Assembly (NCBI RefSeq): GCF_000744825.1 | Contig: NZ_JQMR01000001.1 | Coordinates: 124,001-188,000 of the forward strand | Direction: 5' to 3' | Length of the DNA stretch: 64,000 nucleotides | Origin: Carnobacterium mobile DSM 4848 | Lineage (GTDB): Bacteria > Bacillota > Bacilli > Lactobacillales > Carnobacteriaceae | Shown: positions 24,188 to 28,123 of the stretch, piece after piece | Position numbering within the stretch: position 1 is the stretch's first letter | How the letters are laid out: each line of letters starts with the position of its first letter | Program-made: the position numbers and the translations under genes | Notes under the pieces: model-generated | Seen by the model: the letters and a program-made list of their open reading frames with translations, nothing else | Databases searched by the model: none | What the model was told of the DNA's origin: nothing

Positions 24188-24895
24188 ATGAAATCAGCAC
24201 AAGCACCTCAACCCTTGATTGTTTTAAAGGAAATCAATAAGTCCTTTAAACAAGGAAAACAAGAATCACATATCCTAAAAGGCTTGGATTTGACAATTAA
24301 TGAAGGCGATTTTGTCATGATCATGGGGAAATCCGGCAGCGGAAAAACAACATTGATGAATATCATTGGTTTCTTAGATCGAATCAGTACGGGAACTTAT
24401 TTATTCCGAGGAGAAGATGTCTCGTTATTGAACGAAAACCAAAAATCAGAGTACCGCAATGCATTTTTTGGCTTTGTTTTCCAGCAATTCTTTTTGATCG
24501 ATTCCTTAAATGTGCAACAAAATGTTGAATTGCCGATGGTATATAAAGGGATGAACAATTCAAAAGAAAAAAAAGAAAAAGCCCAACATTTTCTGGATCT
24601 AGTCGGGATTGGAGACAAACTGAAAATGAAAACCTCTGAACTGTCAGGTGGTCAACAACAGCGTGTCGCGATTGCACGTGCATTGATCAATGATCCGCTA
24701 TTGATTATGGCTGATGAACCAACGGGTGCGTTGGATAGTGAAACCGGGAAAACCATTATGGAAACATTGAAAAAATTGAATCAAGAAGGCAAAACCATTG
24801 TGATGGTCACTCATGATGAAGATATGACCGCTTATGCTACACGTGTTATTCGAATGAAAGATGGAGCTTTTGAAGAAGAGGTGACAACAGTATGA
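24188..24895 (+). CDS. ABC transporter ATP-binding protein (MacB/YknY-like)
   Basis: This 235-residue ATPase has Walker [10 protein letters not shown] near 48-56, signature LSGGQQQR near 152-159 and Walker [15 protein letters not shown] near 171-184, the pattern of the LolD/MacB subfamily. It starts 10 bases after the adaptor gene and overlaps the permease start by ATGA, so the three genes are translationally linked. It should power a mechanotransmission-type exporter for a peptide or lipid-like compound. The substrate is unknown. Confidence 0.9.
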
Positions 24896-26127
24896 TCCGC
24901 AATATTTTGATTAGTACATTTTTGAGTTTGAAAGCTCATAAGTTCCGTGTCTTTTTAACGATGTTGGGCATTATTATTGGGATAGCTTCAGTGGTAACCA
25001 TTGCTGCTTTAGGCGAAGGAATCCGACAACAAACAGTAGAGTTAGCCGATTCCACTAATGCGAATGTCATCCAAATCAATTACACCATGCCGATGACAGA
25101 CGAAACAGCTATTTATGAAGATTCAAGTTTTGTATTTTCACGAGTCGATATGAAGCGAATTCAAAAAATAGCAGGAGTCGCTTCTGTTTTACCTGATTAT
25201 GGAGAAGGATTGGGAATGGGCGGTAGCACAGAAGAAATGATCAGTGCAGAATTTGAATATTTTGGGCAGCAATCTTCTCTTCAGTTGACGCCTTACAGCC
25301 AAGACCAAACGCTTTTATACGGACGCAATGTTACAACGGCAGACGCTAATCAGAACGTCATTGTTTTATCGCATGAGGTCTTTGACTATGGCATGATGAT
25401 AGACGATCCGGAAGAGATGATTGGTCAAGCTATTTCAATTAACGGCTATATGTACCAAGTGATTGGGATCAAACAACCGTATGATTATGAGAGCATTTCA
25501 TTAGGCGGCGATGATTATATGACAGCGATGACTTCCGATGTACCAAGAGCCTCTTATAATGAGCTGACCAAATTCAAACCGATTAATGCATTAAAAATTA
25601 AAATGGAGACTACGGCTGATCGGTACGCTGTTACTGAAGCAGTCATTCAATCATTAACTGAAAGTTATCCTGATGAAGAAGGGATTTTTGAAGAAGACCG
25701 TTCAAATGAAGAAATGCAGCAAGAGATGGAAAGTTACATGTCTGGAATTGTGAGCTTTTTAATGGCTATCACGGCTATTTCTCTGCTAGTTGGCGGGATC
25801 GGTGTGATGAACATCATGTATGTATCCGTTACTGAACGTAAGAGAGAAATCGGGATCCGACGTGCAATTGGAGCTAAGCCGCGGAATATTCTGTTCCAAT
25901 TTATTCTAGAAGCAGCTTTTATTACGTTTATTGGGGGGATATTAGGATTGGTATCGGGTTATGGAATTGCTGTGTTGATCGGTAATTTTATGGAACTGAA
26001 ACCTGTTTTGACGATGCAGACGATTTTGTTATCTACTTCTGTTTCTGTTTTGACTGGATTGTTTTTCGGCATTATGCCGGCTATCAATGCAGCTAAAATG
26101 GACCCCATCAAAGCCATTTATCGATAA
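24892..26127 (+). CDS. ABC transporter permease (MacB/YknZ-like, FtsX fold)
   Basis: The protein of 411 residues has the MacB layout: an N-terminal membrane segment (FLTMLGIIIGIASVVTIAAL), a large extracellular domain of about 220 residues, then three C-terminal membrane segments. The cytoplasmic motif VTERKREIGIRRAIGAKPRNI between segments (core ERKREIGIRRAIGAKP) contacts the ATPase and is highly conserved. It completes the tripartite exporter with the two preceding genes. An imperfect hairpin lies about 60 bases beyond the stop. Confidence 0.88.
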   Translation: MIRNILISTFLSLKAHKFRVFLTMLGIIIGIASVVTIAALGEGIRQQTVELADSTNANVIQINYTMPMTDETAIYEDSSFVFSRVDMKRIQKIAGVASVLPDYGEGLGMGGSTEEMISAEFEYFGQQSSLQLTPYSQDQTLLYGRNVTTADANQNVIVLSHEVFDYGMMIDDPEEMIGQAISINGYMYQVIGIKQPYDYESISLGGDDYMTAMTSDVPRASYNELTKFKPINALKIKMETTADRYAVTEAVIQSLTESYPDEEGIFEEDRSNEEMQQEMESYMSGIVSFLMAITAISLLVGGIGVMNIMYVSVTERKREIGIRRAIGAKPRNILFQFILEAAFITFIGGILGLVSGYGIAVLIGNFMELKPVLTMQTILLSTSVSVLTGLFFGIMPAINAAKMDPIKAIYR

Positions 26128-26185
26128 AATAAGAATGGCAAGACTCTTGCTGCAGGCAGACAGAACCGTAAAACAAATACAACAA

Positions 26186-26231
26186 AGAGAATCAAGCAAA
26201 ACGGCTAATGACTGTTTTTGTTTGGTTCTCT
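26186..26231. terminator. Terminator-like hairpin after the macB-like gene
   Basis: AGAGAATCAAGCAAAA pairs imperfectly with TTTTTGTTTGGTTCTCT around a loop of about 13 bases. On the plus strand no clean T run follows. On the minus strand the hairpin is followed by a T-rich tail (TTTGTTGTATTTG), so it may equally end a minus-strand RNA from the element at 26279-26486. Confidence 0.5.
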
Positions 26232-26278
26232 CATTTTAATCGGTTCTTTATCGAATTGTGTTGGTCATGCTTAATAAT

Positions 26279-26486
26279 GAAATTTCCTCCGGAATTTACG
26301 CGTCTGCTTGCAAGAGCCATGGGAACGACTGGAGCCTTACATGTCTCCAGCCTTTCAAGCCTTGCCATGGCTGTTGCTGCTTCAGCAGTTTTACAGACAT
26401 GATACACTTGGGCGCATGCCCACAGTGCTTCGTTTTTAAGAATCCTTTACATGGCTGCAAGGAGCCGCTATTCCTCCGAAAATTTC
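26279..26486 (-). ncRNA. Candidate structured non-coding RNA, unassigned
   Basis: A 208-base block with more G and C than its surroundings folds into nested helices. P1 joins its two ends (GAAATTT with AAATTTC, a 3x3 internal loop, then GGAAT with ATTCC). P2 at 26306-26321 with 26450-26465 pairs GCCATG, TGCA and GCT with small bulges. Inside are three hairpins: CTGGAG/CTCCAG at 26329-26350, TGCTG/CAGCA at 26375-26387, and CACT-GGGC/GCCC-AGTG at 26405-26427. A pair in P1 works as G-U only on the minus strand. A minus-strand promoter-like TTGTCT-16-TATTAT lies at 26554-26527, and a hairpin with T-rich tail at 26186-26231, so I favour minus. It is not recognisable to me as tmRNA, 6S, RNase P or SRP RNA. 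A mobile-element remnant is the main alternative. Confidence 0.5.
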
Positions 26487-26629
26487 AAGTTGTGGAATAG
26501 ACTCATTCTTCTTACCAACACTAAAAATAATAGAACCTTTTAATCGCAAGACAAATCGTTTTCCAATAGTGAGTTCTGTAAGGTAAACTGAAGCTATATG
26601 TAACTATAAGAGGATGAGGAGGAAATGAC

Positions 26630-27969: not shown

Positions 27970-28070
27970 TTCAATGTCTAGCGTTCAAGCCCTGACCTCT
28001 CGTAAAAAAGATGACTACTTCCCACTGCGCAGTATGCTCATTCAGGGTCGTACTCCCTATTTTTACAGAG
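27970..28070 (-). repeat. Intergenic repeat element, copy 2
   Basis: The reverse complement of this stretch aligns over about 95 bp to 5111-5210, sharing GAATGAGCATACTGCGCA, AAAATAG, AGTAC, CGAGAG and GGCTTGAAC-GCTAGACAT with small indels. Its left edge (TAAGTTTTTCTGCAT to GTCTAGC) also matches the sequence just before the degenerate 52-bp repeats near 20158-20184. It fills the gap between celB and the LacI gene. Confidence 0.75.
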
Positions 28071-28123
28071 GTCAAGGCGGGCTTGTTCGCTTTTCTTGTT
28101 TGTTTTAATCAACATATTTTTTT

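What the first reader, a model, noticed from the sequence alone, without database searches (positions are those of the whole stretch)
26186..26554. A 208-bp nested-hairpin element, candidate undescribed structured RNA
Seen: 26279-26486 is enclosed by a terminal helix and a second nested helix, with three internal hairpins, in a G+C-richer block inside A/T-rich DNA. Open frames over it have no ribosome binding sites. The minus strand is favoured: one terminal pair is G-U only there, a promoter-like TTGTCT-16-TATTAT lies upstream at 26554-26527, and a hairpin with T-rich tail lies downstream at 26186-26231. I recognise no known RNA class. A transposable-element end is the alternative.
Basis: partly seen in the sequence, partly recalled or inferred. 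Interest (0 to 1): 0.72.

Follow-up and report, generated by a model that had tools for sequence, protein, structure and literature searches.

The report
ISL3-type MITE carrying a widespread hairpin
The folded stretch is a small non-coding "hitch-hiking" transposon, one of about 40 in this genome, and its centre is a separate 70-letter double-hairpin motif that turns up across related bacteria, often exactly at the ends of tRNA genes, and matches nothing in the RNA-family database searched.

Summary
The fold is real, but the element is larger than reported. Window 26242-26537 is a complete 296-bp MITE. It has 24-bp terminal inverted repeats (GGTTCTTTATC...GTGTTGGT / GGTTCTATTATTTTTAGTGTTGGT) and a perfect 8-bp target duplication, TTTTAATC. 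About 40 copies lie in the genome, and their ends match ISL3-family insertion sequences in the same genome at up to 21/24 bases. Copies sit next to intrinsic terminators far more often than chance (15/31 vs about 3%). Its '-35' box lies in flanking DNA and is not shared by other copies.

The core fold is conserved across genera with many compensatory changes, but strand-neutral counts favour neither strand. The surprise is the centre (26362-26431). This 70-nt two-hairpin 'X' module is carried by at least four different repeat families in this genome. A covariance model finds it in 58 of 395 genomes of the order, some of them only as weak hits. In tRNA arrays it abuts tRNA 3' ends in one fixed orientation; in rRNA operons it lies just before 5S rRNA. 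It matches nothing in Rfam.

Verdict: a new ISL3 MITE family with a mosaic core. It contains an uncatalogued conserved hairpin motif whose function is unproven.

The parts
26242..26537 (.). Complete MITE copy (296 bp), element + orientation as in the window
   Evidence: Whole-genome search: about 40 dispersed copies starting and ending at these bases
26242..26265 (+). Left terminal inverted repeat GGTTCTTTATCGAATTGTGTTGGT
   Evidence: Repeated at the ends of copies; 18/24 to IS A right end and 19/24 to the C. jeotgali IS
26514..26537 (-). Right terminal inverted repeat GGTTCTATTATTTTTAGTGTTGGT (contains the TATTAT read as a -10 box)
   Evidence: 21/24 identical to the left end of the full ISL3 element in the same genome, L048
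26234..26241 (.). Target-site duplication, left copy TTTTAATC
   Evidence: Identical to 26538-26545; exact duplications in 17 of 28 copies vs mean 0.64 with flanks shuffled
26538..26545 (.). Target-site duplication, right copy TTTTAATC
26279..26486 (.). Structured core (terminal helix, nested helix, internal hairpins)
   Evidence: conserved across four genera with covariation
26329..26350 (.). Internal hairpin CTGGAG...CTCCAG; changes in step on both sides among copies (CTGGAG/CTCCAG, TTTGAG/CTCAAA, CTGAAG/CTTCAG)
   Evidence: helix 7
26362..26431 (-). X module: two hairpins joined by GTA, GAAGCACTGTGGGC..GCCCAAGTGTATCATGTCTGT..ACAGCCATGGCAA; exchanged for a different hairpin (Y) in the 252-bp subtype
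   Evidence: Models R1/R2; 85-95 bits here
26186..26241 (+). Intrinsic terminator (hairpin 26186-26231 plus T-rich tail) of the upstream ABC-transporter permease gene 24892-26127; not part of the element, but its T-tail is the insertion site
   Evidence: Inverted repeat I5 (-21.2 kcal/mol, 10 nt from the element); similar terminator in the congener without the element

Best explanation
[quoted passage not shown] Shown: defined ends, 24-bp inverted ends, 8-bp target duplications, high copy number, match of its ends to resident ISL3 elements, insertion next to intrinsic terminators, and a syntenic site without the element in a congener. Inferred: an ISL3 transposase made elsewhere in the cell cuts and pastes it by its ends, and in this case it landed in the T-tail of the terminator of the upstream ABC-transporter gene. 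The core is built of exchangeable hairpin modules. The central 70-nt X module (26362-26431) was captured from, or shared with, an older two-hairpin motif that is widespread in Lactobacillales. That motif also lives outside MITEs, abutting tRNA 3' ends and preceding 5S rRNA. The most likely role of X in those operons is as a processing or spacing hairpin in the transcript (inferred, weakly supported by a G-U bias of 23:9 towards the transcribed strand). In the MITE the core is most likely cargo, and this copy is probably not a dedicated RNA gene.
For: Copies and ends. Target duplications 17/28 exact vs 0.64 expected (maximum 4 in 1000 shuffles). ISL3 transposases and TIR match; in several related genomes the MITE ends match that genome's own ISL3 element (e.g. 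G013 22/24, C. jeotgali 22/24). The same core lies between a second pair of ISL3 ends (B type, 23/24 to IS B) with exact 8-bp duplications in three copies. Terminator adjacency 15/31 vs 3%. Site without the element. Conserved fold: alifold z -7.7 to -10, 14 of 44 pairs with double compensatory changes, 0/500 shuffles reach the covariation score. X as an independent module; in alignment A5 all 23 pairs have compensatory changes.
Against: No transposition was observed. The window copy's own left end is only 18-19/24 to any IS end found. Some genomes with many copies (G012, G015, G016) have no detectable ISL3 transposase, so those copies may be fossils or the driver may be missing. The core is not derived from the IS interior, so this is not a simple deletion derivative. 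The origin and direction of X capture are not resolved.
Confidence: 0.92

Rival explanations
1. A free-standing structured RNA gene on the minus strand with its own promoter and terminator.
For: Significant fold, covariation, and a conserved TATTAT/TATAAT-like hexamer at the right end in this and related genomes.
Against: The -35 box and the terminator lie outside the unit and are not shared by other copies. Strand-neutral pairs show no G-U bias. Copies sit beyond terminators, mostly in convergent or same-direction spacers. The TATAAT-like hexamer is also in the ISL3 ends themselves.
Confidence: 0.06
2. The core acts as a regulatory RNA or DNA structure for neighbouring genes (extra terminator, RNase III site or mRNA stabiliser), as proposed for other folded bacterial repeats.
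For: Very stable fold on both strands and placement next to terminators. X modules sit inside tRNA and rRNA operons, which are certainly transcribed.
Against: In this window an intrinsic terminator lies between the upstream gene and the element. Orientation relative to neighbours is mixed (13 vs 8 in same-direction spacers).
Confidence: 0.2
3. Palindromes in the family are kept matched by template switching during replication (quasipalindrome correction) rather than by selection, so the covariation carries no functional meaning.
For: Two copies in different genomes (L042, L100) carry the same imperfect hairpin converted into a near-perfect palindrome. No strand preference in the MITE core.
Against: Conserved mismatches and the 1x2 internal loop persist in X across families, which correction would erase. 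tRNA-linked X copies show G-U on the transcribed strand 23 vs 9.
Confidence: 0.3

Closest known systems
ISL3-family MITEs / non-autonomous ISL3 derivatives
   Same: GG(T/C)TCT-type ends of about 24 bp, 8-bp target duplications, no transposase gene, co-resident ISL3 elements with matching ends
   Different: The interior is not a deletion product of the IS. The same core is shared by MITEs with two different ISL3 end types. Insertion next to intrinsic terminators is strongly enriched.
Streptococcus pneumoniae BOX / RUP / SPRITE repeats (review PMC10969869)
   Same: Modular, folded, intergenic repeats of a lactic-acid-bacterium relative, with exchangeable internal parts
   Different: Sequence relationship was not tested here. 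These copies have ISL3 ends and a separate X module that also abuts tRNA genes.
REP / BIME mosaics with RAYT transposases (PMC2817692)
   Same: Short palindromic modules recurring in several mosaic arrangements and orientations
   Different: No Y1 transposase in the own genome and no X near Y1 transposase genes elsewhere.
MITEs of Coxiella burnetii (QMITE, PMC5896051, cited in PMC10969869)
   Same: Intergenic MITEs whose predicted transcripts fold strongly; small RNAs proposed to derive from one of them
   Different: Different host group and sequence; no transcript evidence here.

Membership tests
ISL3-type MITE | Terminal inverted repeats matching an ISL3-family element | tested here: met
   Right end 21/24 to the resident IS A (22/24 to a C. 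jeotgali IS), left end 18-19/24; B-type copies 23/24 to IS B; IS A and IS B encode PF01610 transposases
ISL3-type MITE | 8-bp target-site duplication | tested here: met
   Exact in this copy and in 17 of 28 intact copies
ISL3-type MITE | Small, multi-copy, no transposase gene | tested here: met
   250-316 bp, about 40 copies, longest ORF 80 aa here
ISL3-type MITE | Interior derived from the parent IS by internal deletion | tested here: not met
   No similarity to the resident ISL3 elements beyond the ends. Not required by the usual MITE definition, so the filing stands.
ISL3-type MITE | Mobilised in trans by an ISL3 transposase | not testable with these tools
   Needs a transposition assay
REP/BIME (RAYT-associated) | Associated Y1 (RAYT) transposase flanked by the repeats | tested here: not met
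   PF01797 absent from the own genome; no X match at 24 PF01797 loci of other genomes
Known Rfam structured RNA | Score above a family's gathering threshold | tested here: not met
   No match in the window or at X in other loci
Structured non-coding RNA gene | Conserved fold with compensatory changes | tested here: met
   template switching is not excluded as a cause
Structured non-coding RNA gene | Own promoter and terminator conserved with the unit | tested here: not met
   Both lie in non-repeated flank
Structured non-coding RNA gene | A transcript of defined strand and ends | not testable with these tools
   No RNA data
S. pneumoniae BOX element | boxA-boxB-boxC sequence modules | not tested
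   No BOX sequences were compared

The most novel reading that the evidence does not exclude
The X module is an undescribed class of two-hairpin element, about 70 nt long, of Lactobacillales and possibly other Bacilli. It spreads on its own to the exact ends of tRNA and other stable-RNA or ribosomal genes, works there as an RNA-processing or spacing element, and has repeatedly been captured by unrelated mobile repeats, including this MITE.
Probability: 0.35. Interest if true: 0.8.

Novelty: new variant of a known kind. Interest (0 to 1): 0.58.

Why it matters
MITEs are usually seen as junk deletion products of one insertion sequence. Here the same structured, covarying core rides between the ends of two different ISL3 elements, and its central motif exists independently at tRNA 3' ends and before 5S rRNA across several families of one order. 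That gives a concrete, searchable case (models R1/R2 and their alignments) for asking whether mobile repeats spread RNA-processing signals. It also suggests that ISL3 elements and their MITEs favour the tails of intrinsic terminators, which would explain how dozens of copies are tolerated.

Tried and rejected
Rfam with default and permissive thresholds: nothing on the core or on X. Plasmids, phages and viral contigs: no match for the MITE or for X, so no sign of carriage by those. A hybrid promoter at the right end: -35 boxes are not enriched in flanks. Strand assignment by G-U pairs: even on strand-neutral pairs. RAYT/REP mechanism: no Y1 transposase in the own genome and no X beside Y1 genes elsewhere. 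Deletion derivative of the resident IS: no interior similarity. One RNAalifold run over X- and Y-type cores mixed together gave poor consensus folds, so the two subtypes were analysed apart. Literature searches for Carnobacterium MITEs or repeats, ISL3 MITEs and terminator-targeting insertion sequences, and tRNA-linked repeats found no description of this family; the library holds open-licence papers only, so this is weak evidence of novelty.

Full report
1. What was checked. The fold at 26279-26486 exists as described and is more stable than any of 200 dinucleotide shuffles on either strand (minus -77.6 kcal/mol, z -4.2; plus -71, z -4.4). No Rfam family matches the window, and a permissive search of 26180-26560 gives only two sub-threshold hits to plant and plastid families over the flanking hairpin.

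2. The unit is a repeat. A search of the own genome with 26180-26560 gives 44 matches at about 40 places. Aligning these fixes the ends at 26242 and 26537. Copies begin GGTTCTTTATC..GTGTTGGT and end with the complement of GGTTCTATTATTTTTAGTGTTGGT, and this copy is flanked by TTTTAATC on both sides. Among 28 copies with both ends, 17 have an exact 8-bp duplication and 21 have at least 7 of 8. Pairing left and right flanks at random gives a mean of 0.64 exact (maximum 4 in 1000 trials). A congener (G002) has the neighbouring genes and a similar terminator without the element; that spacer also differs by a small open frame, so homology there is approximate.

3. The likely driver. The genome has three ISL3 (PF01610) transposase genes in two kinds of full element: IS A (L048, 1523 bp) and IS B (L049 and L050, 1524 bp), each with 8-bp duplications. 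The MITE right end is 21/24 identical to the IS A left end; its left end is 18/24 to the IS A right end. Mobilisation in trans is an inference from this.

4. Same core, other ends. Three copies (L038, L039, L041) carry the same core between B-type ends (GGTTGTACAAC..GACGTTGGT, 23/24 to IS B), each with an exact 8-bp duplication (AGTAAAAT, AAATGAAA, TTTTTATA). The core has no similarity to the interior of either IS. The 252-bp subtype has a different central hairpin (Y) in place of the 296-bp subtype's centre, with the outer helices kept. So the element is modular.

5. Where copies insert. 15 of 31 own copies have a strong hairpin ending within 16 nt of one edge, against 2.4% of random intergenic positions of the window and 3.2% of A+T-rich ones (distances). 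In this window that hairpin is the upstream gene's terminator, whose T-tail is the duplicated target. With crude ORF calls, 17 copies lie between convergent genes, 21 between genes in one direction and 2 between divergent genes. The '-35' box is also outside the unit, and such boxes are not enriched beside other copies.

6. Conservation of the fold. In the bacterial family, 11 of 18 genomes (4 of 6 genera) have matches to the core. For the Y-type core (23 sequences) RNAalifold finds 44 pairs, 14 with changes on both sides, a covariation score that none of 500 shuffles reaches, and a collapse when partners are slid. For the X-type core (17 sequences) the covariation score again exceeds all shuffles, though the number of pairs with a double change does not. 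Column-shuffled alignments give z of -10.2 and -8.4 (Y; minus, plus) and -7.7 and -9.1 (X). Pairs predicted from both strands show G-U on minus vs plus of 10:8 and 8:7, so no strand is favoured. Two copies show an imperfect hairpin turned into a near-perfect palindrome (L042, L100), so template switching works in this family and some covariation may not reflect selection.

7. The X module. The central 70 nt (26362-26431) of X-type copies from several genera were aligned and made into a covariance model. In 395 genomes of the order it matches 58 (16 of 80 genera) at E at most 0.001 per genome; several of these are single weak hits. Genomes of three taxonomic families examined in full have 4 to 26 copies each. 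Most hits outside the own family lack ISL3 ends. In tRNA arrays, 23 of 46 inspected sites start within 2 nt of the 3' end of a tRNA (Met or fMet, Ser, Glu), all in the same orientation. In two rRNA-operon loci X lies 2-4 nt before 5S rRNA in the opposite orientation. The inspected sites were best-scoring, partly orthologous loci, so the proportion is not a rate. In the own genome X also sits in two further repeat families: GTCTAGC..GGACAAGCC (L349, L350, L352-L354) and GACCCGACGTCCACT (L348, L351, L355). Across 76 aligned copies all 23 predicted pairs have compensatory changes. tRNA-linked copies show G-U on the transcribed strand 23 times vs 9 on the other, without correction for relatedness. 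In a class-wide search multi-copy hits were confined to two genomes of the own family, plus weak single hits next to the ribosomal protein S9 gene in two other families.

8. Reading. The element is a new ISL3-type MITE family with a mosaic folded core. For this copy a role as cargo is most likely, and a dedicated RNA gene is unlikely. What deserves follow-up is X, a conserved two-hairpin motif absent from Rfam that is both part of several mobile repeats and fixed at the ends of tRNA genes. Its function, its mode of spread and the direction of capture are open.

9. Limits.

Noticed in passing
window 27976-28105: A second intergenic repeat with inverted ends (GTCTAGCGTTCAAGCCC...GGCGGGCTTG) between the PTS gene and the LacI-type regulator gene; 23 matches in the own genome. 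Several relatives of it carry the X module, this copy does not.
   Followed up: partly
L280, L281, L288, L289, L342, L345, L346 (other families): X-like two-hairpin matches lie at the 3' side of the ribosomal protein S9 gene (rpsI). In L342, L344 and L347 the match starts right after the stop codon. Several of these loci hold only a short duplicated rpsI tail, which suggests integrative elements inserted at rpsI.
   Followed up: partly
own genome and L049/L050: Full-length IS B copies also have terminator-like hairpins at their edges, so a preference for terminator tails may belong to ISL3 transposition itself.
   Followed up: partly
L178 (Atopococcus tabaci), 1529-1720: A single Y-type core in a different genus (BLAST E 2e-15) without recognisable ISL3 ends.
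   Followed up: no
L277, L283, L287, L294 (other genera): Hairpins with the same upper stem and 1x2 internal loop as X occur in tandem arrays.
   Followed up: no
G012, G015, G016: Genomes with many MITE copies but no detectable PF01610 transposase: possibly fossil families whose driver was lost.
   Followed up: no
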